In this document: positions 40,242 through 58,180 of the stretch, in pieces
How positions within the stretch are numbered: position 1 is the stretch's first letter
How the letters are laid out: every line of letters starts with the position of its first letter
Assembly: GCF_027533845.1 (NCBI RefSeq)
Contig: NZ_JAPZVN010000009.1
Location: forward strand, 62,001 to 126,000
Length of the DNA: 64,000 nucleotides
Source: Streptomyces sp. RPT161
Lineage (GTDB): Bacteria > Actinomycetota > Actinomycetes > Streptomycetales > Streptomycetaceae
Direction of reading: 5' to 3'
Translations under genes and position numbers: made by a program
Notes under the pieces: generated by a model
Databases searched by the model: none
Seen by the model: the letters and a program-made list of their open reading frames with translations, nothing else
Told to the model about the DNA's origin: nothing

Positions 40242-40243
40242 CC

Positions 40244-41022: not shown

Positions 41023-41638
41023 ACTGATGGACGCCGACACCGTCGTCGGGCCGCGGGCCGAGGACACGTTGCCGTCGTCGGCCACCGCCGCGGTGAAGAT
41101 CGTGATCGTTGGCGGCTTCGGGGTCGGCAAGACGACCCTGGTCGGCTCGGTGAGCGAGATCCGCCCACTGACCACCGAGGAGACGATGACCCAGGCCGGT
41201 GTCGGGGTGGACGACATCGCCGGGGTGGAACGCAAGACGGCGACCACCGTCGCCATGGACTTCGGCCGGATCAGCATCAACGACGAACTGGTGCTGTACC
41301 TGTTCGGCACGCCCGGCCAACAGCGCTTCTGGTTCCTCTGGAACGGTTTGTTCCGGGGCGCGTTGGGGGCTGTGGTGCTGGTGGACACACGACGCCTCGA
41401 AGTCAGTTTCGATGTGATCGGACGGCTGGAGGAGCGCGAAGTCCCCTTCGTCGTCGCCATAAACACCTTCCCCGAAGCGCCCACCTACCCCACCGAGGAA
41501 CTACGCACCGCACTCGACCTGCCCGCACACGTCCCCATCGTCGACTGCGACGCCCGCAAGCGGGCCTCCAGCCGCGACGTCCTGCTGACCCTGATGCGCT
41601 ACCTGCACTCCCTCGCCGCCACACCGGAGCACTCGTGA
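41003..41638 (+). CDS. cvnD: conservon small GTPase CvnD
   Basis: 211 residues. The P-loop GGFGVGKTTLVGS lies near residues 31-43, FGTPGQQRFWFLW is the switch II (DxxGQ-like) region, and VVAINTFP carries a degenerate NKxD position. This is the Ras-like GTPase of the conservon, expected to cycle between GTP and GDP forms under CvnB control. It begins inside cvnC and ends in a GTGA overlap with the P450 gene. Confidence 0.9.
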   Translation: MDFKSSELMDADTVVGPRAEDTLPSSATAAVKIVIVGGFGVGKTTLVGSVSEIRPLTTEETMTQAGVGVDDIAGVERKTATTVAMDFGRISINDELVLYLFGTPGQQRFWFLWNGLFRGALGAVVLVDTRRLEVSFDVIGRLEEREVPFVVAINTFPEAPTYPTEELRTALDLPAHVPIVDCDARKRASSRDVLLTLMRYLHSLAATPEHS

Positions 41639-43044: not shown

Positions 43045-43096
43045 GTCTGGTGCAGGTCCCGTATCGCGACGCGTACTCAGGCAGGAGCTCCGCTCC

Positions 43097-44095
43097 TCAA
43101 CGCATTGACGTTGGTGTGGCTAACGCGGTTGTGGGCTCGACGGCGATCCGCATGTGGGACTCGCCGATATGGTGGACTACGCGGTAACGCGGGGCGCTGA
43201 CGTGCCAGCAGGCGAACCCGGCACAGACATGGTGAATGCCGTCGAGCCACCGCCTCGTCCCAGGGCTGTCGGCGTCCTTCAGCAGGCGGCGTTCCGCCTC
43301 CTGTAGCGACTCGACGAGATCATCGTGGAGGCGGGCGGCCAAGCCGAACGCCTCGTCGAGTCGGCACCGCCGTTCATCCGCGAAGGACCGCACCACATTG
43401 GGCCAGTCAGCGGCGAAGTCCTTGGTCACTCCGACGAGGTCGTTGACGACTCCGACGATGGAAGCGGCGAGCATCTCGACGTCCCATCGAGCCGGATGTG
43501 CCCGGGTGACCGCATCCAGTTCCTGGCGCTGCGCGTATTCCACCCAGTGCGTCACTGGCAACGCCCCGCCGATCACGGCTTTCAGTGCCAGGTACTGGTC
43601 TACCGGCGGTTGCCTTCCGGTGCGCCTGGCGGCGTTGACGAGTCCGGCCTCCTGGGAGACCGCGTCGACCCAACTGCCGAAACGGTTCTCCTGCTCCCTG
43701 AGCCATGCCTCACTCATCGTGGTACGAAACTGCCGCCCGATCTCCCACCACCCACGCAGATAGGGGCTTACGTGCCGGAGCTCCTTCAGCTCTCCGCGGA
43801 TCGCTTTGCCCACTGATTCCGGCGGCAGGGCCGTCCCCTCGATGGCATCATCCCAGAAGATCCACAGCGACAACGCGCGTGTCACTGTTCGCAGTTCCCG
43901 CCATCCGGCCAGAGGAAACGGGCATCCTCCGTACAGGCCCACGGACATGGCCTCGAAGACCCGCTCTTCCTCCGCTCCACGGACCACTTGCAGCCTGGTG
44001 AACCATGCACGAGCGTCCCGTTCAACCACTTCGTGCAATGGATTGACGGAAGCGAACCAATGTTCCGGGTAGCGAATACTCACCCTGTCAACCAT
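43097..44095 (-). CDS. class I terpene synthase with unusual second metal motif
   Basis: 332 residues from the ATG at 44095 (GGAGG upstream); the frame is open further upstream without support. The aspartate-rich motif is FWDDAIEG (Asp82, Asp83, Glu86). The NSE triad region reads N218-D-L-V-G222-V-T-K-D226, with Gly where Ser/Thr and Asp where Glu are usual. The C-terminal Arg-Tyr pair is present (PRYRVV). It should ionise an isoprenyl diphosphate, perhaps farnesyl diphosphate by size. The gene is convergent with the P450 at a 52-base gap. Confidence 0.75.
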   Translation of the reverse strand: MVDRVSIRYPEHWFASVNPLHEVVERDARAWFTRLQVVRGAEEERVFEAMSVGLYGGCPFPLAGWRELRTVTRALSLWIFWDDAIEGTALPPESVGKAIRGELKELRHVSPYLRGWWEIGRQFRTTMSEAWLREQENRFGSWVDAVSQEAGLVNAARRTGRQPPVDQYLALKAVIGGALPVTHWVEYAQRQELDAVTRAHPARWDVEMLAASIVGVVNDLVGVTKDFAADWPNVVRSFADERRCRLDEAFGLAARLHDDLVESLQEAERRLLKDADSPGTRRWLDGIHHVCAGFACWHVSAPRYRVVHHIGESHMRIAVEPTTALATPTSMR

Positions 44096-44539
44096 GGCGT
44101 GTGTCCTCCGTGCCGACTGTGGCGGACTCTCTTGGAAAACGCGAATGCGGTCGGCGTCGAACAGGCAACCGGGCTCCATCAACTGGGCGTCGCACGCCTT
44201 TGGTGAAGGCTCGCCGGCCAACTGCAAGCGGTGGGCGGAACCTGCATCCGTGCTGCGAGCGCACAGCGCCCGCACACCCTCCGACCCGTCAATCGTCCCC
44301 ACCAGCCCCACCGTCCCGCGCCGTTGCCCCGAACCCCACTTTCGAACGCCCGTACACCACCGGGTCTAGCCAACCAGTTGCATGTTCGACTTTTCACTCA
44401 CGAGCAGGCAAGGGCAAGTGCCACTCAAGGCGGCGCGCGAGGCACGCGGCCGCACGCACACAACGGCAGCGCACTCCGCCCCTGTCACGCGCCACCCGCA
44501 CACGCTGATCGGCGTCAGGCACGGAAATTGGAGATTACT
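44096..44539. other. intergenic region, no gene seen
   Basis: About 440 bases upstream of the terpene synthase gene and downstream of a GNAT gene. The open frames crossing it have no ribosome sites and look like shadows. The terpene synthase promoter should lie near its right of 44095; no clear boxes were found. Confidence 0.4.
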
Positions 44540-45319
44540 TCAGAACGGGTACATGTACGGCGTAGTAGTACTCACCCGAGCAAACCCCAACCGGCCCAGG
44601 ATCGGTCGGCTCTCGTCCGACGCGTCGACCTGTAGGTAGCGGTAGCCGCGTTCGGCGGCGAGGGCGGCGCGGTAGGCGATGAGGGCGCGGTAGATACCCC
44701 TGCCGCGCCAACTCGGGAGGGTGCCGCCGCCCCATAGGCTGGCGAAGTCGGTGCCCGCGTGGAGCTCCAGGCGGGCCGCGCAGACCGGCTGGTCGTCTGC
44801 CATGGCGAGGACCGCCGTTACCGTGTCGGGGGTCGCGGTCAGTTGGGCCAGTAGGCGGTGGCGGAGGCGGGAGCCGTCCGTGCCGAAGACCCGTTCGTGG
44901 ACGTCGGCCACCAGGTCCACGTCGGCCGCGTCGGTCACCGGGCGCAGGTGGATGCCCGCTGGGAGGCTGACCTCCGTGGGGAGTTCGCCGATCTCGGCGA
45001 TCATCACGGCCTCCTCGGGGCGCGGGGTGAATCCCGCCGCGCACAGTCGCTGTCCGAGGTCGGCCGGGCGGTCATGGGAGTAGTGCTTCCACTCGAACTC
45101 CCCGCATCCCAACTCCCGGAAATGCGCCACCTGTTCGGCGATCACCGCATCCGCGGAATCCGCGTCGAGGCCCGACCAGAGGATGCCGTTCCAGTCCTGT
45201 GCCGTACCAACCTGGCGCACCACGTCGCCCGCCCGCTCGACCCGGGCGCCGGGTCCGTCCGCCCGCGCGCCCAGCCGCATCTGCTGGTCATACGTCACCA
45301 GTACCTTCTCAATGTCCAT
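44540..45319 (-). CDS. GNAT-family acetyltransferase
   Basis: 259 residues from the ATG at 45319 (GGAG upstream). The C-terminal half is a GNAT domain: IHLRPVTDAADVDLVADVHERVFG, LWGGGTLPSWRGRGIYRALIAYRAALA as the acetyl-CoA-binding loop and helix, then YLQVDASDESRPILGRLGF. The N-terminal half looks like a degenerate second acetyltransferase domain. It probably acetylates a small amine; the substrate is unknown. It sits 48 bases after a regulator gene on the same strand and may share its transcript. Confidence 0.8.
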   Translation of the reverse strand: MDIEKVLVTYDQQMRLGARADGPGARVERAGDVVRQVGTAQDWNGILWSGLDADSADAVIAEQVAHFRELGCGEFEWKHYSHDRPADLGQRLCAAGFTPRPEEAVMIAEIGELPTEVSLPAGIHLRPVTDAADVDLVADVHERVFGTDGSRLRHRLLAQLTATPDTVTAVLAMADDQPVCAARLELHAGTDFASLWGGGTLPSWRGRGIYRALIAYRAALAAERGYRYLQVDASDESRPILGRLGFARVSTTTPYMYPF

Positions 45320-45367
45320 GCGGGCACTCCAGCACCGAACAGTCACACGCGGCAACGCCATTTGCGA

Positions 45368-46222
45368 TCAGCCCCGGCCGCCCTCGGTCATGGACTGGGT
45401 GCCGATGACATTGAGGAGCCTGAGTCGCTCGGCATCCGCGCTGCCGGGCGCGGCGGTGTAGGCGATGATGCGCAGATCGCTGCCGGTAGCCGTGAGCACG
45501 TCGCAGTCGAGGGTGAACGTCCCGACATCGGGGTGATGGATGATCTTGGTGTCCGTCTCGTGGACGCCGACGGTTCCCGTGTCCCACAGTCGTGCGAAGT
45601 CGACGCTGACGTCCCGAAGGTCCTTGATCAGGGAGCGCAGCCCGGCATCGGCGGGGTAGCGGGCCGTCGCCGCCCTGAGATCGCCGACCACGGCGTTCTC
45701 GAACCGGATCTGCTGCTCGGCGGTGTGGCTGACCCGGCTCGGCAGACCGGTGAAGTGACGCCAGACGATGTTGCGTTCGCGTCCGCTCCACGCGGACACG
45801 TCCCCGTGCAGGGCGGCCCACATCGGGTTCCACAGGATCAGACTCCACGCGGCGTCGCACACGCTGAGCGGTGCGCCGTCCAACTGGTCGAGCAGTCTTC
45901 GGACGCCTGCCGGGATGTGCGCCGACAGCTGCCCGGGGCCCGGCGCCGTCTCGCCCGCGAGCCGATACAGGTGTTCGCGCTCCACGTCCGACAGCCGTAG
46001 GGCGCGGGCCAGCGCGGACAGGACCTGGGTCGACGGGGAGGTGGCGCGGCCCTGTTCCAGTCGGACGATGTAGTCCACCGACAGGCCCGCGAGCTGCGCC
46101 AGTTCCTCACGCCGCAGTCCGGCGGCCCGCCGTACTCCGCCGACGGGCAGTCCCACCGCGGCGGGGGATGTTCGGTCGCGCCAGCCGCGCAGCGCCCTGG
46201 CCAGTTCCCTGGACTCGCTCAT
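45368..46222 (-). CDS. XRE-family regulator with MmyB-type ligand domain
   Basis: 284 residues from the ATG at 46222. The N-terminal helix-turn-helix is RREELAQLAGLSVDYIVRLEQGRATSPS, and the remaining 190 residues match the MmyB-like sensor domain (LLDQLDGAPLSVCDAAWSLILWNPMWAALHG, FTLDCDVLTATGSDLRIIAYTAAPGS). It is divergent from an SDR gene, a very common actinobacterial pairing in which the regulator represses the dehydrogenase. Confidence 0.85.
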   Translation of the reverse strand: MSESRELARALRGWRDRTSPAAVGLPVGGVRRAAGLRREELAQLAGLSVDYIVRLEQGRATSPSTQVLSALARALRLSDVEREHLYRLAGETAPGPGQLSAHIPAGVRRLLDQLDGAPLSVCDAAWSLILWNPMWAALHGDVSAWSGRERNIVWRHFTGLPSRVSHTAEQQIRFENAVVGDLRAATARYPADAGLRSLIKDLRDVSVDFARLWDTGTVGVHETDTKIIHHPDVGTFTLDCDVLTATGSDLRIIAYTAAPGSADAERLRLLNVIGTQSMTEGGRG

Positions 46223-46357
46223 GCCCCCAGTATCCGGCCGCCGCGGCAGGACAGCCTGGTACTGGCAGTCCACAGGATGCGGCGGGTACTGCCTGTTCCT
46301 CGGTGCTGCGACGAGGGTGGTGGCATCACCACCTCACCGATCACCGGAAGTGAGCAC

Positions 46358-47084: not shown

Positions 47085-48413
47085 CTAGCCCCGCACCGTG
47101 AGCACCGCCGCGGACTCAGCCCCGTTCGCCGCGTTGATCGGGGCGAGTCCGCTCGGCAGTGACTGCCGCAGCATCACTCCGGCGAACCGCCCGCCGAACA
47201 CCAGTGGCCCCAGCACCACTTCACGCTCCGGCGGGGTAGCCCCCGGCAGCTCGACGACCGCCGGGCGCAGCCGCTCCTGCACCACGTAGCGCTCGCGCTG
47301 GTCGGCCAGCCGCTCCCGGATGAGGGCCCGCCACTCCTGGTCGGTCATCGCGCGGCCGAACGCCACGCCCTTGCCGCCGTAGGCCGAGGCCGGTTTGCAG
47401 ATCAGCCGCTCGCGGTCGGCGAGCGCACGGTCGGCGGTCTCGGCGCGTAGCCGGAACGTCGAGGGCACGTGTGTGCGCACCCACTCGCGTTCCTCCGACC
47501 GCAGTTGGGAGGCGAACTCGGGGGCGGTGAGCAGTTCCAGGTTCGCCTTGTTGTCGAAGAGTGCGGCGGCGGGGGAGCCGACGAAGTCCAGCTTCCCGGC
47601 CGTGTCGAGATCCATCAGGGCACGGGTGTGTTCGTGCGGCACGAAGGCCCTGGACTCGTGCCAGGTGTACATCGTCACCACGACGTCCACGCGTCGGCCC
47701 TCGAAGTACGCGCCGTCGTCGGTGGTTTGGAGGTCGGTGACCAGGCCACAGCTGATCTCGTAGCCCGCGGAGCGGATCATCCGTACGAAGAAGCGGCGGC
47801 CGGAGTCGATGTCCGCCGGGTTGGCGATCGCCTCGAAGACATGCGGCGGCCGGTCGCCGCGCCGCCGTACGAGTGCGGCGAACGTCTCCAGCCACGTCTT
47901 CGCGGTGTCGGGACCGAGCAGGCCCAGTCCGCGCCGTTCCAGGAACCGGTGGTAGGCCGAGGCCCGGGCGGCGTCGGTGTACGGGGGAAGTGTGCTCAGG
48001 CCGCCGAGCGAGGTGGCGACGTTCAACTCGACCAGTTTCAGGCCGCCTTCGGTCACCAGCAGGTCGGGCCGCATGAACGAGGTGGCGATGCGGCGCAGCC
48101 GTGGGTTGCGCAGCGCCGCGCACATCAGGTCGGCGTCCTCCTGCGGCACCCCGAGGTACTCGGCCCATGCCGCCAGGTCGTCGCCGAAGATCCGCCGCGG
48201 CAGGCTGGCGAGCAGCTCGCAGAGGCGTAGCCCGGCCGTGGCGGTCTCGTCGGACGCGGCGGTGGTGAAGCAGGGCGGCGGGTACATGTGCCGGTAGTTG
48301 GACCGGTGGATGCTGTGCTGGAAGCGCGCCCGATCGGGCTCGGCCTCTTCGGTGGCCGCGAAGTCGGTCCAGGCCGCCACTGCCCGTGGCTCAAGCCAGT
48401 CCCATGCGGTCAT
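47085..48413 (-). CDS. ATP-grasp ligase 1 (GSP-synthetase-like)
   Basis: 442 residues. The C-terminal half has an ATP-grasp core, LICKPASAYGGKGVAFG, and a VVELPGATPPEREVVLGPL-VFGGRF region. The N-terminal half includes VELNVATSLGGLSTLPPYTDA, like the glutathionylspermidine-synthase pre-ATP-grasp fold. It should form an amide from a carboxylate and an amine using ATP. Last gene of the six-gene operon that begins at 54131; its start overlaps the previous stop by ATGA. It has no close twin among the three other ligases. Confidence 0.7.
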   Translation of the reverse strand: MTAWDWLEPRAVAAWTDFAATEEAEPDRARFQHSIHRSNYRHMYPPPCFTTAASDETATAGLRLCELLASLPRRIFGDDLAAWAEYLGVPQEDADLMCAALRNPRLRRIATSFMRPDLLVTEGGLKLVELNVATSLGGLSTLPPYTDAARASAYHRFLERRGLGLLGPDTAKTWLETFAALVRRRGDRPPHVFEAIANPADIDSGRRFFVRMIRSAGYEISCGLVTDLQTTDDGAYFEGRRVDVVVTMYTWHESRAFVPHEHTRALMDLDTAGKLDFVGSPAAALFDNKANLELLTAPEFASQLRSEEREWVRTHVPSTFRLRAETADRALADRERLICKPASAYGGKGVAFGRAMTDQEWRALIRERLADQRERYVVQERLRPAVVELPGATPPEREVVLGPLVFGGRFAGVMLRQSLPSGLAPINAANGAESAAVLTVRG

Positions 48414-49417
48414 GACAGCTTGCCCGCGGAACGCAGCGCGTCCAGCACGGTGTTGACCGCCTCGGAGGACTGGTCGACACCGGTCGCACGGTAGGCGTAG
48501 CTGAGTCCGCCCGGGTTCACCAGGTTGAACTCCATGACGTACGGATACGCCAGGTCGATCCCGGAGTAGAAGATGCCGAGTCCCATCATGCGCTTGCCGA
48601 GTTGGCGCACGAAGTCGTCCTCTTCCGGGGTCAGGGTGAGGGGCTCGAACCTGGCGCCGAGCGTGACGTTGGCCCGGTCGTCGTGCTCGGGGTGGATCCG
48701 CCTGAAGCCGCTCACCGGGGTGTCACCGGCGATGATGACCCGCTTCTCGTTGCTGCGTACGTTGGGTATGTACTCCTGTACGGCGGTGTACCGCTTGGCC
48801 ATGCCGATGATGTCGCGTCCGTACCTGCCGTAGCGCGGCGCGGCGTTGCCGGTGGCGGACTGCAGGAGTGCGGAGCGGTTGCGTTCGTGCTTGCTGAGGA
48901 AGTAGACGTCCGCACCGATGCCGTCGTTGGTGGGCTTGACCACCCAGGTGCGTGCTGGGTCGGACTCCACCAGGCTGGTGAGGAAGTCGAAGTCGTTGGA
49001 GACGTAGGAGGCGGGGAGGTTCTCGTTGGGCACCGCGGCGCCGAGGGTGGTCTTGGAGTTCATGTAGAACAGCGCGGACGCGTCGTTGACGAACGGCACC
49101 CGCCGGTTGAGCAGCCACAGCAGTTGGAAGTGGTCGGTGAGCGCGTCGGGATGGGTACCGGCGAGCACCCAGACCAGGTCGAACTCCTCGGCGGACGCGT
49201 AGGACTCGCTCAGTGCCGGGAAGTCGCTGCCGACGAGATACTCCTCGGTGAGCCGCACCCGGTCGCACACCACGACGGAGTCGTGTACGCAGAGGGTGTC
49301 GATGTCGCCGATGTACACGTCGTGGCCTTCGCGGAACAGCGCGCTGGGGATGATGGAGTGGTTGTCGAGCCGGAACGTGGCCGCCTCGGACACCAGGACC
49401 AGGATCTTGTACGACAC
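48410..49417 (-). CDS. ATP-grasp ligase 2 (glutathione-synthetase/RimK-like)
   Basis: 335 residues. MSYKILVLVSEAATFRLDNHSI at the start and the ATP-grasp elements TWVVKPTNDGIGADVYFL, a VQEYIPNVRSNEKRVIIAG segment, and GIDLAYPYVMEFNLVNPGGLSY are the GshB-like layout, with the final Glu/Asn metal ligands in MEFNLVN. It likely ligates an amino acid to a peptide carboxylate. It is separated by 34 bases from ligase 3 and overlaps ligase 1 by ATGA. Confidence 0.75.
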   Translation of the reverse strand: MSYKILVLVSEAATFRLDNHSIIPSALFREGHDVYIGDIDTLCVHDSVVVCDRVRLTEEYLVGSDFPALSESYASAEEFDLVWVLAGTHPDALTDHFQLLWLLNRRVPFVNDASALFYMNSKTTLGAAVPNENLPASYVSNDFDFLTSLVESDPARTWVVKPTNDGIGADVYFLSKHERNRSALLQSATGNAAPRYGRYGRDIIGMAKRYTAVQEYIPNVRSNEKRVIIAGDTPVSGFRRIHPEHDDRANVTLGARFEPLTLTPEEDDFVRQLGKRMMGLGIFYSGIDLAYPYVMEFNLVNPGGLSYAYRATGVDQSSEAVNTVLDALRSAGKLS

Positions 49418-49450
49418 GGGAAGCGCCTTTCAGGTTGAACGGGCGGTCTT

Positions 49451-50716
49451 TCAGCGGGCTTTGACGGCGTGCTCGGCCGCGGTGAGCGCGCGCACGGCGC
49501 GGGCCAGGTTGTGCTCCAGCCCGTCGCGGGTGTCGCCGGTGGCGACGACGAAGCCGTGCCGGTCGCCGGACTTGCGGATCTCCGGCGGGTACTCCCCCGC
49601 CGGTACGCAGACGCTGACCTCGGCGACGCCGGGCAGCGCGGCGACCGGTGCGGTGTCGATGACGGGCATCGCAGCGGCCCGGTCGAAGGTGACGTAGCGG
49701 ATGCCCGCCACCCGGGTACGGGTGGCCTCGGTGGGCGCCGGTAGTCCGAGGACGTTGGCCATCGCCTGCTCGAAGACGTCCTCGCCCAGGGCGAGTTCGA
49801 GCATGTCGCTGATCCGGTCGCCGCCAGGGCGGCCGTGTGACTCGATGAGCCGGGGCCCGGCCGCGGTGAGCATGACCTCGGTGTGCGAGGGCCCGTAGCG
49901 GTAGCCCGCGGCGTCCAGGGTCGCGGTGACGAGGTCGCCGATGGCGGCCTGGTCGGCGGGGTCCAGGTGGACGGGCAGGGTGTGCCCGGTCTCCACGAAG
50001 TGCGGAGCGCCTGTGGTCATCTTCTCGGTGATGGCGAGGATGCGGTGACCGGCGGGTGAGCTGATGGCCTCGACGCTGTACTCGGTCCCGGTCAGGAACT
50101 CTTCCACCAGGTGGGGGGTTTGGAAGTCGAGGGTGCTCAGATAGTGCTCGGCCTCGCTGGGGCCGGTGAGGTACCGCACCCCGGAACTGCCTGTTCCGTC
50201 CACTGGCTTGACCACGCAGGGGAAGCCGATCCGATCGGTGGCGGGCAGGATCTCATCCTTCGTGAGGCACGTCAGATGGGCCACCGGCGCTCCCGCCCGG
50301 TCGCCGACCAAGGACCGCAGCCGTGCCTTGTCCTTGAAGGCTTCGAGGGCCTGCGGCGGGTTGCCGGGCCAGCCCAGTTCGCGGTTGACCACCGCCGACA
50401 CCGCGCAGCCGAGTTCGCCGAAGCCGAAGCAGCTCACCGGTGCCGGAAGCTCCAACGCACGGAGTTCATCTATGAGTTCGCCGGGGTCGATGTGCCAGGG
50501 GGTACGGAGCACCGGCCCCGACGCGCCAACCGGTTCCGGGCCGCCCGGCACGGTGGCGATCACTGTGGAGACGCCGAGTCGGTGCGCCGCGCGGATCACC
50601 AGGTCGCGTGGGTTGAGCAGTACGGCGGTGCACCGTGCCGGGTCACTGTGCGGGTTCTGGTGAGGTGGTGGGCCTTGGGGTGTTGGCGGGGTGGGTGTTC
50701 GCGACATGGTGGGCAC
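49451..50716 (-). CDS. ATP-grasp ligase 3 (carboxylate-amine ligase type)
   Basis: 421 residues from a GTG at 50716; an ATG at 50707 is the alternative. Both overlap the 3' end of the exporter gene by 65-74 bases. ATP-grasp core: FPCVVKPVDGTGSSGVRYL, TPHLVEEFLTGTEYSVEAI, and HTEVMLTAAGPRLIESHGRPGGD with metal ligands. The C-terminal region (VRYVTFDRAAAMPV-like) resembles BacD/L-amino-acid ligase-type enzymes that make dipeptides. It acts presumably on an intermediate of the same pathway as ligases 1, 2 and 4. Confidence 0.75.
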   Translation of the reverse strand: MPTMSRTPTPPTPQGPPPHQNPHSDPARCTAVLLNPRDLVIRAAHRLGVSTVIATVPGGPEPVGASGPVLRTPWHIDPGELIDELRALELPAPVSCFGFGELGCAVSAVVNRELGWPGNPPQALEAFKDKARLRSLVGDRAGAPVAHLTCLTKDEILPATDRIGFPCVVKPVDGTGSSGVRYLTGPSEAEHYLSTLDFQTPHLVEEFLTGTEYSVEAISSPAGHRILAITEKMTTGAPHFVETGHTLPVHLDPADQAAIGDLVTATLDAAGYRYGPSHTEVMLTAAGPRLIESHGRPGGDRISDMLELALGEDVFEQAMANVLGLPAPTEATRTRVAGIRYVTFDRAAAMPVIDTAPVAALPGVAEVSVCVPAGEYPPEIRKSGDRHGFVVATGDTRDGLEHNLARAVRALTAAEHAVKAR

Positions 50717-51881
50717 GATCTTTCGGTAGGAGGAGGCAGGCTGCCGCGGCGCCGACGGACAGCCCGATGATCACCAGCCAGACCCCGCTGCCGCCGCGCA
50801 GCGTCTGCAGGAGGAAGCCGCCCATGCTGGCGCCCAGCAGGCTGCCGAAGGCACCGGCCGCGGCCATGGTGCCGAGCGCACGCCCGGTACCGCGCGTCGA
50901 ACTCGCCTTGATCGCCTGTTCGTCGAGGCTGGGTCCTACCAGCATCTCGGCGGCCGTGACCGGCAGTACGAAGGCCAGCAGCGAGAACCAGCCGGCCCGC
51001 GGAATGAGCACCGCGTAGGCGCAGCCGAACGCGAGGAACCCGATGGCCAGCAGCGTACGGGTGGCGGTGCGGCGGAAGACGTGCCGCAGCAGTGTGTACT
51101 GGCACAGCACCACCAGCGCGCCGTTGATGGTGAAAACCACGGAGATCGCGGCGGTGCTGCCGGTCATGGCGTGCGCGGTGATCGGCATGACCACGTTGAG
51201 CTGGCTGTAGATCGCCCAGTAGGCGACGCCGACCAGGCACAGCGGTATCCACTGCCAGCGCGCCCAACCCGGCGCGTCCGGTGCGGCATCCCGCGCCGCC
51301 GCAGGGCGCGGCCGAGGTCGCGCCGTGAGCGGCCGGAACGCCAGGCGCAGGCCGAGCACCAGGTGCGAGAGCACACAGGCGCCGAGGATGAACGGGAAAC
51401 CGAACGGGTACACGGCGGCGCCGAGCGCCGGTCCGAGGACCACGCCGATGTTCACGAACGTGGCGCGCAGCGCCAGCATGGTGCGTGGTTCGACGCTGTC
51501 CTCGGACACCAGCAGCGTCTTGATCGACAGGCCCAGCATCGACCCGCCGACGCCGAGGGTGACGATGCCCGCCACGATCGGCGTCAGCCGGGTACCGCCG
51601 CCGAGGGCGAGCAGCAGATATCCGGCGATCCGCAGCGCGAACCCGGCCATCATCACCCGTCGCGCGCCACACCGGTCCACCAGCATCCCGCACAGCAGCG
51701 AGAAGCCCTGGTTGGAGAAGGCGAGCAGGCCCACCAGGAATCCCGTGCGGCTGGCCGAGATGCCCTGCGCGGTGAGCTGGATGGCCAGCAGCGGCAGGAA
51801 CATGAACGTCGTCAGGCCGGTGAACAGCACGGCGATCAGCAGTGTGCGTCCGGTCGGCGACGTCTGGCGCCACGCCTTCAC
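50643..51881 (-). CDS. MFS exporter of the ligase operon
   Basis: 412 residues, 12 predicted helices, with MFS landmarks GFLVGLLAFSNQGFSLLCGMLVDRCGARRVM between helices 2 and 3. It overlaps ligase 4 by ATGA at its start and ligase 3 at its end, so it belongs to the operon and probably exports the peptide product or provides self-resistance. Confidence 0.8.
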   Translation of the reverse strand: MKAWRQTSPTGRTLLIAVLFTGLTTFMFLPLLAIQLTAQGISASRTGFLVGLLAFSNQGFSLLCGMLVDRCGARRVMMAGFALRIAGYLLLALGGGTRLTPIVAGIVTLGVGGSMLGLSIKTLLVSEDSVEPRTMLALRATFVNIGVVLGPALGAAVYPFGFPFILGACVLSHLVLGLRLAFRPLTARPRPRPAAARDAAPDAPGWARWQWIPLCLVGVAYWAIYSQLNVVMPITAHAMTGSTAAISVVFTINGALVVLCQYTLLRHVFRRTATRTLLAIGFLAFGCAYAVLIPRAGWFSLLAFVLPVTAAEMLVGPSLDEQAIKASSTRGTGRALGTMAAAGAFGSLLGASMGGFLLQTLRGGSGVWLVIIGLSVGAAAACLLLPKDRAHHVANTHPANTPRPTTSPEPAQ

Positions 51882-53074
51882 GGCCTTCGCCCTTCACGTT
51901 GCGGCGCCTCGCGCAGGTTCGCCAGCAGCCAGTCCTCCACTTCGAACAGCCGCTGTTCCACCTGAAGGGTGTCGGCGCCCTCCACGATCGCGAAGCACAG
52001 GTGGGAGGTGCTGTTCTGCGCTGTGGCGCCGGGTGGGAGTTTGTCGTTCACCTGGTAGTGCCGCACCCACGCGAACGGCGGTTGCGGCGGCGCCCCGACC
52101 GGGCGGCCCGGCGGCACGATGGCGACCGAGCCGTGCAGTGTGTTCGGCGGTGTGCTGGGCGCCGGGTCGACGGGCAGCCCGCAGGACAGCCGCAGCCAGG
52201 TGGTGAGCAGGTCGAGTCCATAGGTGGCGCGGGTGAGGGCGGGGATACGGGAGCCGCCGACCCGCGAGGCGATCTCGCACAGCAGCAGCTCGTCGTCCAG
52301 CGTGTGGAACACCTCAAGGTGGTAGGCACCGGTCGCCGGGGTGTCGAAGACGTCCAGCACGCTGTCCAGGAACTCCTCCAGCCGCTTGGCGAGCTTGTCC
52401 TGCGGGTGCAGTTGCAGCGAGCCGTTGTTCTGCCCGGACAGCACGCCGAGGCAGTTGCGCAGATAGCGGGAGGAGGCGACGAACCGGTAGCCGTCGGCCA
52501 GGACCGCGTCGACGTGGTAGATGTCGCCCTCGACGTACTCCTCGGCCATGAGGTCGTCGCGCCAGTGCCGACGGCTGAAGGCGACCAGTTCTTCCTCGTC
52601 GCGCAGCACCACGATGTCGCGTGAGCCACCCTGCTTCACGGGCTTGACGACGACGGGGTACCCGTTGTCGTCGATGAAGTCGGTGAGATCGGTGATCGTC
52701 GCCAGCCGGGCGAAGCGCGGGGTGGCGACGGCGCGTTCGGCGACCTGCTTCATGACCACTTTGTCGCGGAACGACAACGCGCTCACCGGTGACTGGCCCG
52801 GGATGTCGAGGTCCGCGCGGATGCGGGCGGCCCGTTCCAGGTCGTACTCGTTGTCGGTGATCAGGTGGCTGAACCGCTCCTCCTTCGCCAACTGACGGAT
52901 GCGCAGTTCGGCGTAGGGTACGAACTCGCAGTCCGGCACGTACTCGTACCGCGCGAACCGCCCGGTGTCGGCCAGCTCGTGGTGGCTGAAGACATGGAGT
53001 CGGTCGGCCAGTTCGGGGAGCATGGCGGCATAGTCGTTCAACGGACCGTAGTTGATGACCGCGACGTTGGCCAT
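51878..53074 (-). CDS. ATP-grasp ligase 4
   Basis: 398 residues from the ATG at 53074 (AAGGAAG upstream); a GTG at 53092 adds six residues. ATP-grasp core: YPVVVKPVKQGGSRDIVVL, LMAEEYVEGDIYHVDAVL, and HLEVFHTLDDELLLCEIASRVGGSR with acidic metal ligands. The N-terminal NVAVINYGPLNDYAAMLPEL part is a pre-ATP-grasp Rossmann-like domain. It follows the PLP-enzyme gene by 19 bases, so it may act on that enzyme's product. Confidence 0.75.
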   Translation of the reverse strand: MANVAVINYGPLNDYAAMLPELADRLHVFSHHELADTGRFARYEYVPDCEFVPYAELRIRQLAKEERFSHLITDNEYDLERAARIRADLDIPGQSPVSALSFRDKVVMKQVAERAVATPRFARLATITDLTDFIDDNGYPVVVKPVKQGGSRDIVVLRDEEELVAFSRRHWRDDLMAEEYVEGDIYHVDAVLADGYRFVASSRYLRNCLGVLSGQNNGSLQLHPQDKLAKRLEEFLDSVLDVFDTPATGAYHLEVFHTLDDELLLCEIASRVGGSRIPALTRATYGLDLLTTWLRLSCGLPVDPAPSTPPNTLHGSVAIVPPGRPVGAPPQPPFAWVRHYQVNDKLPPGATAQNSTSHLCFAIVEGADTLQVEQRLFEVEDWLLANLREAPQREGRRP

Positions 53075-53093
53075 TTGGCGTACTTCCTTCACA

Positions 53094-54131
53094 CTATGAG
53101 GCCAGTAGTTCCAGTTCCGGCAGGTTGTCCCGCACGCTGAACGACCGTCTGGCCCAGTTCGTGGTGCACCAGGGACCGGCGATGTCGGCCAGATCGGAAA
53201 TCACGGCCGGGCGGTAGCCCGGGTCCGCGACGAGCGGTCCGTCGAGCGGGTACACCTTGTCGACGTAGCGGTGTCCGGGGTCGGCCGCGATGAACACTAT
53301 GGGCCCACCGGTGGGTTCCACGGAACGGTGATAACGCGCCACCTGCCAGCCCGCGCCGGCGGACAGCCCGGCGAACACACCTGTGGTGGACAGCAGATGA
53401 CGGCATCCGGCCGCGGCGACATCGAAGTCCAGCCAGTGGATGTCGTCGTAGGCGCTGTAGTCGATGTTGTCGAAGCGGATTCCGCTGCCGATGCCCGCGA
53501 TGATGAACCCGTCGAGCGGAACGGATTCCGCGCCGAACGACCGGCTGCCGAACGGCTGGATGCCGGCCACCCGTACATCGCCGCCGGCGGCCCGTAGATA
53601 GCGGCTCATCGCGCCGGTCGAGGCACCGGTGCCGACCCCGCCGACCAGGGTGAGATCCGCCGAACCGAGTTCGCCGATCAGCGAGTTGGCCACCTTCTCG
53701 TATCCGACGTAGTGCACGTCGTCGTGGTACTGCCGCATCCAGTACGCGTCCGGGTGCTCGTTGAGATAGGCGTGGACGCGCCGGACCCGGGTTTCCTGGT
53801 CGTGCTTGAGGCTTTCCGAGGGCGGCACCTGGTCAAAGGTCGCGCCGAGGTACTTCAGCTGTGTCCTGATCGCCGTGTCCACCGCGACGGAGGCGAAGAT
53901 ATGGCATTTCAGGCCGAGTTCCCGGCAGACCAGTGCGAGTGCGTGACCGTAGATTCCGCTGGAGCTGTCCACCAGCGTCTGCCCGGGGCGGATCACCCCG
54001 CGGGCCAGCAGGTCCTTTACCGCCGCATAGACCGAGGTGACCTTCATGACCTCGAAACGGAGGACGTAGATTCGGTCGTCCAACTCGATCAGGTCCGGTT
54101 CCGCGAGTTTCTCCGCGAACGTTCTGTACAC
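53094..54131 (-). CDS. fold-type II PLP enzyme, cysteine-synthase-like
   Basis: 345 residues from the GTG at 54131, chosen because GGAAAGGA lies seven bases before it; the frame is open far upstream but would cross the divergent promoter. Lys39 (AAVKD) is the likely PLP lysine and GTGASTGAMSR the phosphate loop. The loop that is usually SGNxG reads SSGIYG, so the Asn is replaced. CysK/SbnA-like enzymes do beta-replacement on serine derivatives, for example making diaminopropionate. It is the first gene of the ligase operon and may supply a non-protein amino acid. Confidence 0.7.
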   Translation of the reverse strand: MYRTFAEKLAEPDLIELDDRIYVLRFEVMKVTSVYAAVKDLLARGVIRPGQTLVDSSSGIYGHALALVCRELGLKCHIFASVAVDTAIRTQLKYLGATFDQVPPSESLKHDQETRVRRVHAYLNEHPDAYWMRQYHDDVHYVGYEKVANSLIGELGSADLTLVGGVGTGASTGAMSRYLRAAGGDVRVAGIQPFGSRSFGAESVPLDGFIIAGIGSGIRFDNIDYSAYDDIHWLDFDVAAAGCRHLLSTTGVFAGLSAGAGWQVARYHRSVEPTGGPIVFIAADPGHRYVDKVYPLDGPLVADPGYRPAVISDLADIAGPWCTTNWARRSFSVRDNLPELELLAS

Positions 54132-54369
54132 TTCGAAATCCTTTCCGGATAAGTCGCGTTCAGCTGCGCCCGCGGCGATCGGAGGAGGAACTGGGAGGGT
54201 GACGGGCAGGCCCGGCAGACGCGTGGTGCCGAGGTACGGCCGAGAACCTAGGAGCGGGTCGGCTGGCACGTCAAGAATCCATGTCAAGTCCGGAGTTGGA
54301 ACGTTGGACCTGACAGGCTTCCGGGTGCCGCGTGGACAGCGTCGGCGCTCACGCAAAGGATGGTCGGCC
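54132..54369. promoter_or_regulatory. divergent promoter region of the peptide cluster
   Basis: About 240 bases between the PLP-enzyme gene (minus) and the A-T didomain gene (plus). It should hold both promoters. No strong palindrome was seen. Confidence 0.5.
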
Positions 54370-56148
54370 ATGGTGAGCCTGTCTTCTACCCATTCTCGCC
54401 GCCCGGCGCATTCAGCTGCGCCCCGGCTATCCGAATTCCAGCAGCCGGTACATGACACCGTCATGGAACGCGCCCGGCTACATCCGGACCACACCGCCGT
54501 GATATGCGGGGACGACACCGTTTCCTATCGGGAACTCGCCGGCATCGCCCTCGACGTTGCCAGTGAGCTGAACTCAGACGAGGCATACGCCGATTGCCGT
54601 AGAATCGGGATAGAGGCGTACCGTACGGCCGCGACTGCGGCCATCGCGCTCGGTGTCGCCTTGTCCGGCCGGTCGTTTGTCTTCCTCAATCCGGAATCCC
54701 CGGAGAACACTTCGCGGCACATCCGGTCGTCGGCCGGAGTCTCGGTGGTCGCCGATCCCACCAGCGGCGGGTTCCGAAAGCTGCCCGACGCCGGCACCGC
54801 CGCCCCCGCCAGGCCTTCCCCGGCGGACGAGGCGTATGTGCTCTACACCTCCGGCAGCAGCGGCAGGCCCAAGGGCGTGTCGGTCTCCCAGCGCAATCTG
54901 GCGGACTCCACCGCCGCTCGGCTCGCGGTGTACGAGAGCTTCGGTACCCCGACCTTCCTGCTGCTGTCGCCCTTCTACTTCGACTCGTCGGTGGCGGGCG
55001 TCTGGGGCACCCTCGCGGCGGGCGGCACACTGGTGGTCGCCCGTGAGGACGAGCGACGAGATCCGGCGGCACTCGTCGGGCTCATCGCACGGCACGGGGT
55101 CACCCACACGCTGACGGTACCGAGCTTCTACGCCGAGCTGCTGCACACCGTCTTCCAGGACGGTCAACTCGCCGCCGGCCTCGCATCGTTGCGGCTGGTG
55201 ATCTGCGCTGGCGAGTCGCTGCCGCAGGGCGTCATCGAACAGCACTTCTCGCTGCTGCCCAAGGTCACGCTGGGCAACGAGTACGGCCCGACCGAGTGCA
55301 CCGTCTGGGCCACCTACCGGCTGTACGAGCGTCCCGGCGCCTCCGGCATCGGCTTCCCGATCCCCGGCACGTCGATCCATCTGCTGGACGACCGGCTGCG
55401 CGAGGTACCGCCCGGCGAGGTGGGCCAGATCGCCATCTCCGGCCGCGGTGTGACCACTGGCTACGTCGGCGCCGAGCAGGAGACGCGGACGAGGTTCACC
55501 GACATCGAGGTGGCACCCGGCAGGACCGTGCGGGCCTATCTGACCGGCGACCTCGGCCGCTGGTCGGCGGCGCACGGGCTGCAGTTCGCGGGCCGGCTGG
55601 ACAACGAGGTGAAGATCCGCGGCGTACGGGTGAACATCGAAGCCATCGAGGAGACGCTGGCCGCGCACCCCGGCGTACGGGCCGCCGCCGTGGCGCACGA
55701 CTCCGAGACCTCCACCTGCTACGCGTTCGTCGTCAGGGACGCTGACGCCCCGGTCGACGCCGCCTCCGTACGCCACCGGGTGGCGTCGGAGCTGGACACC
55801 GCGGTGGTCCCGGACCGGGTGGTGTTCGTGGAACGACTGCCGCGCACCGCACACGACAAGATCGACCGGTCCGCGCTACTGGCCTCGGTGCGCCGCGCCG
55901 GGGCGGAACCCGCCGACCAGGACGCGGACGGACTCACCGCCCAGATCACCCGGGCTTGGGAGGAGGTCCTGGGCGTGTCGGTGAACGAGGCCGAGCCCGG
56001 CAACTTCTTCGAGCTCGGCGGCAACTCCCTGTCCGTACTGAGGCTTTCCCGCGCGCTGGGCAGGATCGCCGGTCGCCCGGTCGCGGTCAAGCAGGTGTAC
56101 CGCTGCGGCACGATCCCCCAGCAGGTGGAACTGCTGTCCAGCCTCTGA
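54370..56148 (+). CDS. NRPS adenylation-carrier didomain, histidine-like specificity code
   Basis: 592 residues from the ATG at 54370, with AAGGA nine bases upstream; an Arg-rich upstream extension to 54199 is not used. The adenylation domain has YTSGSSGRPKG, NEYGPTE, YLTGDL and VKIRGVRVN. The carrier domain has LGGNS (Ser553). There is no condensation domain. The specificity code I read is D-S-A-L-I-A-E-V-W-K; the histidine code I recall from bacitracin synthetase is D-S-E-L-T-A-E-V-C-K, a 7 of 10 match. With the thioesterase and P450 that follow, this looks like a cassette that loads an amino acid (possibly His), hydroxylates it on the carrier and releases it. Confidence 0.8.
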   Translation: MVSLSSTHSRRPAHSAAPRLSEFQQPVHDTVMERARLHPDHTAVICGDDTVSYRELAGIALDVASELNSDEAYADCRRIGIEAYRTAATAAIALGVALSGRSFVFLNPESPENTSRHIRSSAGVSVVADPTSGGFRKLPDAGTAAPARPSPADEAYVLYTSGSSGRPKGVSVSQRNLADSTAARLAVYESFGTPTFLLLSPFYFDSSVAGVWGTLAAGGTLVVAREDERRDPAALVGLIARHGVTHTLTVPSFYAELLHTVFQDGQLAAGLASLRLVICAGESLPQGVIEQHFSLLPKVTLGNEYGPTECTVWATYRLYERPGASGIGFPIPGTSIHLLDDRLREVPPGEVGQIAISGRGVTTGYVGAEQETRTRFTDIEVAPGRTVRAYLTGDLGRWSAAHGLQFAGRLDNEVKIRGVRVNIEAIEETLAAHPGVRAAAVAHDSETSTCYAFVVRDADAPVDAASVRHRVASELDTAVVPDRVVFVERLPRTAHDKIDRSALLASVRRAGAEPADQDADGLTAQITRAWEEVLGVSVNEAEPGNFFELGGNSLSVLRLSRALGRIAGRPVAVKQVYRCGTIPQQVELLSSL

Positions 56149-56195
56149 ACCGCCCGACACGACCCACAACACCACCGCACCGATGGGTACTTGCC

Positions 56196-56942
56196 ATGAC
56201 CGAACCCACCTCCATCCGAAGGTTCGCTGCCCGATCCGACACCGAGCAATCCGTGTTGTGCTTCCCGCACGCCGGTGGCTGTGCGTCCTTCTTCCGGTCC
56301 TGGCAGTCACTGCTGCCTTCGGCGCGGGTGTGCGCGGTGCAGTACCCGGGCCGGGAGGAGCGCATCGCCGAGCCGACGGCGGGCAGTCTGCTGGAACTCG
56401 CCCAATCCGTCGCCGAGGAGATACTGGCCGACTCGGCGCGCTACTCGGTGCTGTTCGGGCACAGCATGGGCGCGTACGTCGCCTTCGAGGTCGCCCACCA
56501 TCTGCTGCTGGCCGGGGCCGCCGTGCCGACCCTGGTGGTCTCCTCGGCCGCCGCACCCGCGCTACGGCCTCCTGTCCCGTTCGAGAGCTCCGACGAGGTG
56601 CTGGCGTACCTCGAGCGCTATGAGCCGTTGAGCGACGAGATCCGGCAGGACCCGGAACTGCTCGATCTGATCCTCGACTACATCAAGGACGATCTGCGCC
56701 TGGTCGCGGAGTACCGGGAGCACATCGGAAAGCGGATCGACGCGCGGCTGGTGGCCGTGGTCGGCGCGGACGACGTGCCGGAGATCCGGTCCCGGTTCAC
56801 CGCGTGGCAGCAGCACACCGAAGCCGAGTTCGTCCCGGTGGTGAACCCGGGCGGGCACTTCTACCTGCGTACCGATCCCCCGGTCCGGCTGATTCGCGCC
56901 GAGTTGGGTCGGTGCCTCGCCACGGTCGGCACGAGCACCTGA
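56196..56942 (+). CDS. type II thioesterase
   Basis: 248 residues from the ATG at 56196. Alpha/beta-hydrolase features: LCFPHAGGCASFFRSW, the nucleophile elbow GHSMG with Ser90, VVGADD carrying the acid, and NPGGHFYLRTD with the catalytic His. Such enzymes either clear misloaded carriers or, as NikP2 does for nikkomycin, release the hydroxylated amino acid. It overlaps the P450 by one base (TGATG), so the two are co-translated. The weak ribosome site suggests coupling to the A-T gene 47 bases upstream. Confidence 0.8.
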   Translation: MTEPTSIRRFAARSDTEQSVLCFPHAGGCASFFRSWQSLLPSARVCAVQYPGREERIAEPTAGSLLELAQSVAEEILADSARYSVLFGHSMGAYVAFEVAHHLLLAGAAVPTLVVSSAAAPALRPPVPFESSDEVLAYLERYEPLSDEIRQDPELLDLILDYIKDDLRLVAEYREHIGKRIDARLVAVVGADDVPEIRSRFTAWQQHTEAEFVPVVNPGGHFYLRTDPPVRLIRAELGRCLATVGTST

Positions 56943-58180
56943 TGGGAAACGACATGAGGCACGACATCAGTCGCCTGGTGGACGGCGCGACATACCGGTC
57001 CGGCAACCCCTTCGCGTTGTGGCGGTGGATGCGGGAGAACGCACCGGTGGTCTGGCACGAGCCCGGAGCGTTTCCCGGGTTCTGGTCACTGACCCGGTTC
57101 GCCGAGGTGAAGGAGGTGCTGCGGGACGCCGAGACGTTCAGCTCGTCATCGGGCATCCTGCTGCGGCCCCTGGCCCAGGGCGTGGACCCCGGCAGCGACC
57201 GTACCCTCGCGCTCTCCGACGCGCCCCGGCACACCGTGCTGCGCGGTGCGATCGCGGGCTGGTTCGCGCCGCGGAACCTGCGGCTGCTGACCGACTCCCT
57301 CAACTCGGCCGCGCACTCCATCGTGCGCGACGCCGTGCGCGCCTCGCGGATCGACTTCGTCACCGAAGTCGCCGCGAAGCTACCGCTGGAGGTCGTGTGC
57401 GCCTTTCTCGGCATCCCCGACGAGGACCGCCCCTCCATCGTGGAGTGGTCGACCGACGCGTTCTGCGCCGGCACCGCCGAGGAACGCAGCATCGCCCATC
57501 TGCAAATCCTCGACTACTTCGGCGACTTGGCGGAAAGGCGGCGCTCCCGCCCCGGCGAGGACCTGGTGAGCGTGCTCGCGGGGGTTCGGTTCGAGAACAC
57601 GTACCTGCCCCTCGAAGAGGTGGTGCTCAACTGCGACAACCTGCTGGTGGGCGGCACCGAGAACGTACGGTTGGCGATGTCCGGCGGCATGCTCGCGCTG
57701 CTGGAGCGGCCCGGCCAATGGGCGCTGCTGCGCGAGGACTTCGAGGGGGCGGTGGACACCGCGGTCGAGGAGATACTGCGCTGGACGTCGAGTGCCACAC
57801 ACATCCTGCGGCGCGCACGGCGTGATGTGGTGCTCGGCGGCCAGCGGATCCGCCGCGGGGACCTGGTGGTGTGCTGGCTGACGTCGGCGAACCGCGACCC
57901 GGCGCAGTTCGCCGATCCCGATGTCTTCGACGTGCGCCGCACCCCCAACCGCCATCTGGCGCTGGGCGCGGGACCGCACTACTGCGTGGGAACGCGGTTG
58001 GCGAAGCTCGAAATAGCGGCAGTTCTGCGGGAGTTCTTGGCGCAGGTGGACCAGGTGCTGCCGGACGGGGAGCCCGAGCACTTGGACTCCATCGTGGTCA
58101 ACGGCCTGCGCAGGCTACCGCTGCGGCTCACGGCGTCCGCCCTCTCCCGCCCCAGGGGCATGGCAGGTGCGCGGGGGTGA
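56942..58180 (+). CDS. cytochrome P450, probable beta-hydroxylase of a carrier-bound amino acid
   Basis: 412 residues starting inside the TE stop. EEILR provides the ExxR motif and LGAGPHYCVGTRLA the haem cysteine. The I-helix reads GGTENVR, close to GGxE-type NRPS-associated P450s such as NovI and NikQ that hydroxylate an aminoacyl carrier at Cbeta. Soluble, single-domain, full length. Last gene of the cassette; a downstream gene converges on it. Confidence 0.8.
   Translation: MGNDMRHDISRLVDGATYRSGNPFALWRWMRENAPVVWHEPGAFPGFWSLTRFAEVKEVLRDAETFSSSSGILLRPLAQGVDPGSDRTLALSDAPRHTVLRGAIAGWFAPRNLRLLTDSLNSAAHSIVRDAVRASRIDFVTEVAAKLPLEVVCAFLGIPDEDRPSIVEWSTDAFCAGTAEERSIAHLQILDYFGDLAERRRSRPGEDLVSVLAGVRFENTYLPLEEVVLNCDNLLVGGTENVRLAMSGGMLALLERPGQWALLREDFEGAVDTAVEEILRWTSSATHILRRARRDVVLGGQRIRRGDLVVCWLTSANRDPAQFADPDVFDVRRTPNRHLALGAGPHYCVGTRLAKLEIAAVLREFLAQVDQVLPDGEPEHLDSIVVNGLRRLPLRLTASALSRPRGMAGARG

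What the first reader, a model, noticed from the sequence alone, without database searches (positions are those of the whole stretch)
47085..58180. Undescribed-looking peptide cluster: four ATP-grasp ligases plus an A-T/TE/P450 cassette
Seen: one coupled operon of PLP enzyme, four ATP-grasp ligases and exporter, divergent from a three-gene A-T, TE, P450 cassette. Established: A-T plus P450 pairs (NovH/NovI, NikP1/NikQ) beta-hydroxylate carrier-bound amino acids, and ATP-grasp enzymes form peptide bonds without an NRPS line. I do not recognise the combination; it predicts a small peptide containing a beta-hydroxy amino acid.
Basis: partly seen in the sequence, partly recalled or inferred. Interest (0 to 1): 0.85.

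Follow-up and report, generated by a model that had tools for sequence, protein, structure and literature searches.

The report
Ribosome-free peptide cluster using histidine
An actinobacterium related to Streptomyces carries a gene set that appears to make a small peptide without a ribosome or a classical peptide-synthetase line, using four single-bond ligases and a separate three-gene unit that probably makes beta-hydroxyhistidine as one building block; the parts are of known kinds, the combination looks undescribed.

Summary
Window 47085-58180 carries a tight minus-strand run (PALP-type PLP enzyme, ATP-grasp AG4, MFS exporter, AG3, AG2, AG1) divergent from a plus-strand run (A-T didomain, type II thioesterase, P450). 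All nine frames are open and under purifying selection against the nearest relative. I found 11 distinct clusters with the same core: PLP, AG4, MFS, AG3 and AG2 in 11 of 11, AG1 in 8, the A-T/TE/P450 unit in 6. The A-domain code (DSAT[I/V]AEVWK) is one or two letters from a published histidine code said to accept beta-OH. Five sister clusters carry hisG after AG1, and those are exactly the 5 of 11 genomes with two hisG; four carry proB+proC beside the PLP gene. This points to histidine and proline as building blocks. Best reading: short peptide assembled without an NRPS line, with beta-hydroxyhistidine here (histidine in sister clusters), a beta-substituted alanine and probably proline. The beta-hydroxyhistidine unit looks like nikkomycin NikP1/NikQ/NikP2. 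No described match in 10 paper searches; MIBiG was not available. Product, length and PLP chemistry are not shown.

The parts
47085..48413 (-). AG1: circularly permuted ATP-grasp ligase with the fold of eukaryotic-type glutathione synthetase / peptidyl-polyamine synthetases (442 aa); optional, in 8 of 11 clusters
48410..49417 (-). AG2: ATP-grasp ligase, bacterial glutathione synthetase/RimK type (335 aa); E-x-N motif kept in 11 of 11
49451..50707 (-). AG3: ATP-grasp L-amino acid ligase with LAL_C2 domain (start 50716 GTG or 50707 ATG, overlapping MFS)
50643..51881 (-). MFS exporter
51878..53074 (-). AG4: ATP-grasp L-amino acid ligase (best PDB sequence hit 4wd3, 'L-amino acid ligase')
53094..54131 (-). 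PLP enzyme, PALP fold nearest CmnB/SbnA; FEVMKVTS lysine (by alignment reading) and SSGIYG in place of TSGN (345 aa)
54132..54369 (.). divergent intergenic region (238 bp) between the two operons
   Evidence: from the two likely starts
54370..56148 (+). stand-alone A-T didomain, code DSATIAEVWK (predicted histidine), carrier serine in GGNSL
   Evidence: code compared with PMC12283262
56196..56942 (+). type II thioesterase, predicted to release beta-hydroxyhistidine
56942..58180 (+). cytochrome P450, best PDB sequence hit 4l0e, 3mgx also among the best; I-helix GGTENVR, heme GAGPHYCVG; predicted beta-hydroxylase of carrier-bound histidine
44540..45361 (-). GNAT acetyltransferase; next after AG1 in L004, here separated by an MmyB-like regulator and an SDR; possible but unproven accessory gene, matched by tblastn in 2 of 11 loci (window, L004)

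Best explanation
A biosynthetic gene cluster for a short exported peptide built without an NRPS assembly line. Step 1 (inferred by likeness to NikP1/NikQ/NikP2): the A domain adenylates L-histidine and loads it on its own carrier domain, the P450 hydroxylates the beta carbon of the bound histidine, and the thioesterase frees beta-hydroxyhistidine. Step 2 (inferred): the PLP enzyme makes a beta-substituted alanine, most likely from an activated serine such as O-phosphoserine; the nucleophile is unknown. Step 3 (inferred from folds): AG4, AG3 and AG2 form peptide bonds one at a time from free amino acids and ATP, giving a tri- or tetrapeptide that contains histidine or beta-hydroxyhistidine and probably proline; AG1, an optional glutathione-synthetase-like ligase, extends or caps one end. 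Step 4 (inferred): the MFS protein exports it. Shown here: gene content, order, conservation, domain identity, A-domain code, linked hisG and proBC copies in sister clusters. Not shown: any reaction, the order of ligations, the product.
For: Domains and operon structure. Fold of AG1. Core PLP-AG4-MFS-AG3-AG2 in 11 of 11 clusters, order kept except that in L007 the PLP gene is moved and inverted. Cassette in 6 of 11, each time next to the PLP gene and divergent from it. In the family survey the 5 genomes whose best P450 match is 73% or more all have the core's AG2 at 76% or more (5 of 5). [quoted passage not shown] P450 nearest 4l0e, with 3mgx among the best. Two hisG in exactly the 5 of 11 genomes whose cluster carries hisG, one in the other 6. 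An extra close proB in exactly the 4 of 9 tested genomes whose cluster carries proB-proC, with a published precedent of a cluster-borne glutamate 5-kinase proposed to supply proline in a pathway with an ATP-grasp enzyme (scleric acid, passages). Nikkomycin precedent for thioesterase release of beta-hydroxyhistidine from an A-T didomain (passage). Purifying selection on the nine genes.
Against: No transcript, enzyme or metabolite data. The window's own cluster carries neither hisG nor proBC, so histidine rests on the A-domain code and on sister clusters, and proline on sister clusters only. hisG and the cassette occur together in one cluster only (L009). The P450 I-helix has Glu-Asn where P450sky (4l0e) has Glu-Thr, so hydroxylation is not certain. 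An SbnB family member is above its cut-off in 3 of 11 genomes only and never on the cluster, which weakens the known Dap route. The PLP enzyme has SSGIYG, not TSGN. AG3 has E-S-H where many ATP-grasp ligases have E-x-N (recalled); it is invariant in 11 of 11 but its effect is unknown. AG4's metal motif was not established. No MbtH gene in the cluster (two elsewhere in the genome).
Confidence: 0.66

Rival explanations
1. Two neighbouring but separate pathways: an ATP-grasp peptide pathway and an independent beta-hydroxyhistidine (nikkomycin-like) unit that feeds something else.
For: The core exists without the cassette in 5 of 11 clusters, and in those 5 genomes no A domain is more than 38% identical to the cassette's; a related A-T + P450 pair sits in L077 with an aromatic amino acid lyase, an alcohol dehydrogenase and a PF01212 enzyme and without an ATP-grasp match.
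Against: All 6 cassettes seen are adjacent to and divergent from the PLP gene, with no gene between; the 5 surveyed genomes with P450 at 73% or more all hold the core; hisG copies beside the core in 4 cassette-free clusters suggest that the core itself draws on histidine.
Confidence: 0.12
2. A variant of the main reading, not exclusive of it: the PLP residue is 2,3-diaminopropionate or a close relative, as in dapdiamide-type peptides.
For: Best NCBIfam match of the PLP enzyme is SbnA (4.8e-39, 134 bits, far below its cut-off of 350); best PDB hits are CmnB and SbnA. In two Streptomyces plasmid clusters AG4 (66-67%) and AG2 (58-60%) occur without this PLP enzyme; in S. xanthii that cluster is annotated with aspartate kinase, aspartate-semialdehyde dehydrogenase and a diaminobutyrate-type transaminase, so a diamino acid may take the same slot. 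A distant Pantoea operon pairs a PALP enzyme with a GHMP-type kinase, in line with a phosphorylated hydroxy amino acid as substrate.
Against: SbnB above cut-off in 3 of 11 genomes only, none linked; changed Asn loop.
Confidence: 0.25
3. A variant of the main reading: the product is a metal-binding small peptide (beta-hydroxyhistidine as ligand, as in bleomycin) and not an antibiotic.
For: beta-Hydroxyhistidine is a metal-binding residue of bleomycin (general knowledge; no call tested it here).
Against: No uptake or siderophore-receptor gene among the nine genes; in S. globosus the cluster's neighbour is annotated as an AfsR/SARP regulator, often seen with antibiotic clusters.
Confidence: 0.12
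4. The cluster is silent or decayed and makes nothing.
For: No expression data.
Against: dN/dS 0.10-0.33 for the nine genes; all nine frames open in the window; gene order kept in Streptomyces and largely in Amycolatopsis.
Confidence: 0.05

Closest known systems
Nikkomycin NikP1/NikQ/NikP2 unit
   Same: A-T didomain, P450 and type II thioesterase; in nikkomycin the thioesterase releases beta-hydroxyhistidine from NikP1 (review passage PMC4147253; NikQ as the P450 is recalled)
   Different: No MbtH match on the A-T protein (that NikP1 has one is recalled); no nucleoside genes; here beside four peptide ligases. NikP1, NikP2 and NikQ sequences were not compared directly.
Other ATP-grasp peptide pathways (bacilysin BacD, RizA-type ligases, dapdiamide, ketomemicin; scleric acid SclG)
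   Same: Amide bonds by free-standing ATP-grasp ligases; AG3 and AG4 hit L-amino acid ligases, AG3 also BacD; scleric acid also has a spare glutamate 5-kinase (passages)
   Different: Four ligases of four types plus a PALP enzyme and a carrier-bound hydroxylation unit; only weak sequence likeness. The other pathways' gene sets are recalled, not compared.
E-64 ligase Cp1B and glutathione / peptidyl-polyamine synthetases (YgiC, homoglutathione synthetase)
   Same: Fold of AG1; Cp1B joins an epoxysuccinate to an amino acid (passages)
   Different: 11-15% identity in the structural alignments; substrate unknown; sits with three other ligases
Carrier-bound beta-hydroxylase P450s (P450sky, OxyD; NovI recalled)
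   Same: Nearest solved chains include 4l0e and 3mgx (the names P450sky and OxyD are recalled)
   Different: Predicted substrate histidine; I-helix Glu-Asn where both chains have Glu-Thr. CYP125-type chains (8vxi) score as high as 4l0e.

Membership tests
NikP1/NikQ/NikP2-type beta-hydroxyhistidine unit | stand-alone A-T didomain, P450 and type II thioesterase together | tested here: met
NikP1/NikQ/NikP2-type beta-hydroxyhistidine unit | A domain specific for histidine | tested here: inconclusive
   code DSATIAEVWK differs by one letter from the published His code DSALIAEVWK; no assay
NikP1/NikQ/NikP2-type beta-hydroxyhistidine unit | P450 hydroxylates carrier-bound histidine at the beta carbon | not testable with these tools
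   sequence placement only
NRPS assembly line | condensation domains joining modules | tested here: not met
   Pfam scan of the nine genes shows no condensation domain
ATP-grasp peptide ligase cluster | several ATP-grasp carboxylate-amine ligases in one operon | tested here: met
ATP-grasp peptide ligase cluster | ligases form peptide bonds between free amino acids | not testable with these tools
   needs enzyme assays
SbnA/SbnB 2,3-diaminopropionate pathway | SbnA-type enzyme at the family's cut-off | tested here: not met
   134.2 bits against a cut-off of 349.95
SbnA/SbnB 2,3-diaminopropionate pathway | linked SbnB-type dehydrogenase | tested here: not met
   over cut-off in 3 of 11 genomes, never on the cluster's contig position; G000 itself has two unlinked copies
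graspetide (RiPP) | gene-encoded precursor peptide next to the ligase | not tested
   no search for short precursor ORFs was made; supply genes in sister clusters and L-amino acid ligase domains argue against it

The most novel reading that the evidence does not exclude
A previously undescribed family of peptide clusters without an NRPS line, in which a ligase pair (AG4+AG2) is combined with exchangeable building-block units: PALP enzyme + AG3 with either an A-T/TE/P450 beta-hydroxyhistidine unit or proBC/hisG supply genes here, and aspartate kinase / aspartate-semialdehyde dehydrogenase / diamino-acid transaminase with other ligases on a Streptomyces plasmid. Such mix-and-match assembly from single-bond ligases would be a modular peptide logic outside NRPS and RiPP systems, with carrier-bound hydroxylation used only to prepare one free monomer.
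Probability: 0.4. Interest if true: 0.75.

Novelty: new variant of a known kind. Interest (0 to 1): 0.6.

Why it matters
Peptides made by free-standing ATP-grasp ligases are easily missed by detection rules built on NRPS modules or precursor peptides (general knowledge). This family has a conserved core, interchangeable supply genes that hint at the building blocks, and at least 11 carriers, among them strains with collection numbers (S. goshikiensis JCM 4640, S. roseus ATCC 31245, Amycolatopsis rifamycinica DSM 46095, S. ferralitis JCM 14344). It makes a testable claim: related peptides with histidine in one clade and beta-hydroxyhistidine in the other.

Tried and rejected
Dap through SbnA/SbnB as the settled PLP product: kept only as a variant, because SbnB is over its cut-off in only 3 of 11 genomes and is never linked.

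Known product: the open-access paper library was searched 10 times with terms on ATP-grasp, hydroxyhistidine, feldamycin, A-domain codes, hisG/proB, NikP1 and related words; no listing described this cluster. Searches returned no paper. Of papers named here I saw passages only. Feldamycin was considered from memory as a histidine peptide; the passages seen held no structure, so it could not be tested. Pantoea PNP-1 was looked at because of histidine and ATP-grasp; the genes named in the passages differ.

AG1 as a non-ATP-grasp protein (Pfam score just under cut-off): rejected by the fold match.

Cassette and core always together: rejected. 5 of 11 core clusters lack the cassette in the stretch held, and in those 5 genomes the best A-domain match to the cassette's A-T is 38% identical or less, against 59% or more between cassettes. 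The concatenated tree of four core proteins splits cassette-bearing from cassette-free clusters (support 0.943), but the single-gene trees disagree about L007, so a single gain or loss is likely, not proven.

AG1 hidden elsewhere in the three genomes whose cluster lacks it: not found in G234 and G349; one weak match (3.3e-4, 30% over 117 residues) in G006.

hisG recruited once: the copies of L005, L006, L008 and L010 form one clade; the L009 copy falls apart from them, so one or two recruitments. proB was counted in 9 of the 11 genomes only (not in those of L049 and L050). For the L010 proB copy one search counts one TAA in its span; the local alignment shows none in 396 columns. G004 also has a third, weak proB match (1.1e-5).

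Motif searches that failed (AG4 pattern in 11 of 11, AG2 pattern in 4 of 11) were faults of my patterns; AG2 was re-read and has E-x-N in all 11. AG4's metal motif was not established. The MFS match of L050 looked partial and is full length.

Plasmid search with AG2: 6 records matched; 4 were opened, the Bradyrhizobium and BHT-5-2 records were not.
Full report
What is there. The window lies in a 7.69 Mb genome (contig G000:C129) of a genus with 3 genomes held; its nearest named relative here is Streptantibioticus ferralitis (AG2 94% identical). The minus-strand genes overlap or lie within 33 bp of each other, the plus-strand genes within 47 bp (coordinates). Likely starts are later than the longest ORFs suggest (PLP 54131, A-T 54370, TE 56196, P450 56942), inferred from homologue alignments and upstream sequence. 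None of the nine carries a TTA codon. All nine are under purifying selection against S. ferralitis (dN/dS 0.10 to 0.33).

The weakest identification, AG1, was tested by structure prediction from 10 aligned relatives (mean pLDDT 85.3). It matches circularly permuted ATP-grasp ligases over its length: YgiC (Z 30.2, 352 aligned, rmsd 3.1), glutathionylspermidine synthetase (Z 27.6), human glutathione synthetase (Z 24.5) and the E-64 ligase Cp1B (Z 24.5). AG2 is closest to bacterial glutathione synthetase (1gsa, 1.8e-09), AG3 to the L-amino acid ligase BL00235 (3vot, 1.8e-14), AG4 to an L-amino acid ligase (4wd3, 2.2e-14). So the four ligases are of different types.

Relatives. One scan of named genomes with AG2 gave 8 loci. 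AG2 was found at E 1e-60 or better in 9 of 394 genomes of the family and 6 of 391 genomes drawn from the order (the two sets overlap and both count the window's genome). Three weaker AG2 hits (L046, L047, L048 in G069, G057, G378; 51, 50 and 39%) lack the core and are not counted. PLP, AG4, MFS, AG3 and AG2 are in 11 of 11 (MFS of L050 rechecked). AG1 is in 8 of 11, missing from L007, L049 and L050, and not found elsewhere in two of those genomes, with one weak match in the third. The A-T/TE/P450 unit is in 6 of 11; the five genomes without it have no A domain more than 38% identical to it. L049 lies on a 561,689-base plasmid of S. globosus, beside a gene annotated as AfsR/SARP regulator.

Building blocks. 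The A-domain code read at the standard positions (positions recalled from GrsA) is DSATIAEVWK in the window, L004 and L009, DSATVAEVWK in L011, L049 and L050, and DSASIAEVWK in the related L077. [quoted passage not shown] Independently, an ATP phosphoribosyltransferase gene (hisG, first enzyme of histidine synthesis) follows AG1 in 5 of 11 clusters; the same 5 genomes have two hisG, the other 6 have one. In 4 of 11 clusters glutamate 5-kinase and pyrroline-5-carboxylate reductase genes (proB, proC) stand divergent from the PLP gene, where the cassette stands in others; those 4 genomes have an additional close proB among the 9 tested, and these copies form their own deep clade. A glutamate 5-kinase in the scleric acid cluster was proposed by its authors to supply proline (PMC13307308, passages). 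I infer that the core uses histidine and proline, and that the cassette clade hydroxylates histidine first. Against this: the window's own cluster has neither supply gene, and only L009 has both hisG and the cassette.

The cassette. Among solved chains the P450 is nearest 4l0e, with 3mgx also among the best; I recall these as P450sky and OxyD, hydroxylases of carrier-bound amino acids. CYP125-type chains score as high as 4l0e, so the placement is suggestive only. [quoted passage not shown] That is the same layout, and free beta-hydroxyhistidine is what an ATP-grasp ligase would need. A caution is the Glu-Asn pair in the I-helix where both chains have Glu-Thr; it is shared by 12 of 12 P450s of this and neighbouring groups that I read. 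Of 394 family genomes, 20 have a P450 match at 1e-120; the five at 73% identity or more are all core carriers, and the sixth (60%, G036 = L077) sits in another setting with an aromatic amino acid lyase, an alcohol dehydrogenase and a PF01212 enzyme.

The PLP enzyme. It has the PALP domain, nearest to CmnB and SbnA among solved chains, but scores far below the SbnA cut-off, has SSGIYG where CmnB has TSGN, invariant in 11 of 11, and SbnB is over cut-off in only 3 of 11 genomes and unlinked. A distant Pantoea agglomerans plasmid operon joins a PALP enzyme (29% identical, also without TSGN), an ATP-grasp ligase, an AG2 relative (30%) and an MFS protein with a GHMP-type kinase. A kinase there suggests a phosphorylated serine or threonine as substrate. 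The product here stays open.

Wider picture. On two Streptomyces plasmids AG4 (66 to 67%) and AG2 (58 to 60%) occur together without a match to this PLP enzyme and with other, AG3-like ligases (30 to 35%); in S. xanthii they stand with aspartate kinase, aspartate-semialdehyde dehydrogenase, a class III transaminase and TauD-type dioxygenases. AG1 and AG2 relatives (43%, 51%) occur in L051 and L052 next to NRPS A domains, one with a code that resembles the proline code I recall, and L052 also shows a PhyH dioxygenase. This suggests that ligases and monomer-supply genes are exchanged as units.

Verdict. The parts are of known kinds; the combination was not found in 10 searches of an open-access paper library, and MIBiG could not be consulted. 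All chemistry is inferred.

Noticed in passing
window 38475-44311: Likely conservon-type operon (histidine-kinase-type ATPase, small proteins, P450; conservon recalled) with a terpene synthase on the opposite strand; largely the same order in L004. Separate from the peptide cluster.
   Followed up: partly
window 44540-46273: GNAT acetyltransferase comes next after AG1 in L004 but is separated here by an MmyB-like regulator and an SDR; may be an accessory gene.
   Followed up: partly
L077 4511-19219: Different cluster around a related A-T/P450 pair (48/57%): aromatic amino acid lyase, alcohol dehydrogenase and PF01212 enzyme by Pfam; Rieske-type, methyltransferase-like and second P450-like proteins by eye; no ATP-grasp match.
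   Followed up: partly
L091 1-14088 and L090 1-13002: Streptomyces plasmid clusters sharing AG4 and AG2; S. xanthii is annotated with supply genes of the aspartate/diamino-acid branch, and NBC_01591 (unannotated) looks alike by eye.
   Followed up: partly
L093 4893-12311: Pantoea agglomerans plasmid operon: GHMP kinase, PALP enzyme, ATP-grasp, AG2-like ligase, MFS, M17 aminopeptidase, methyltransferase; a distant look-alike of the core.
   Followed up: partly
L051 5309-19901, L052 2-15187: AG1/AG2 relatives beside a multi-domain NRPS gene with at least three A domains and a PALP enzyme; L052 also has a PhyH dioxygenase.
   Followed up: partly
G000:C49:119796-120779 and G000:C61:37169-38146: Two SbnB family genes over cut-off in the window's genome, not linked to this cluster; their surroundings were not read.
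   Followed up: no
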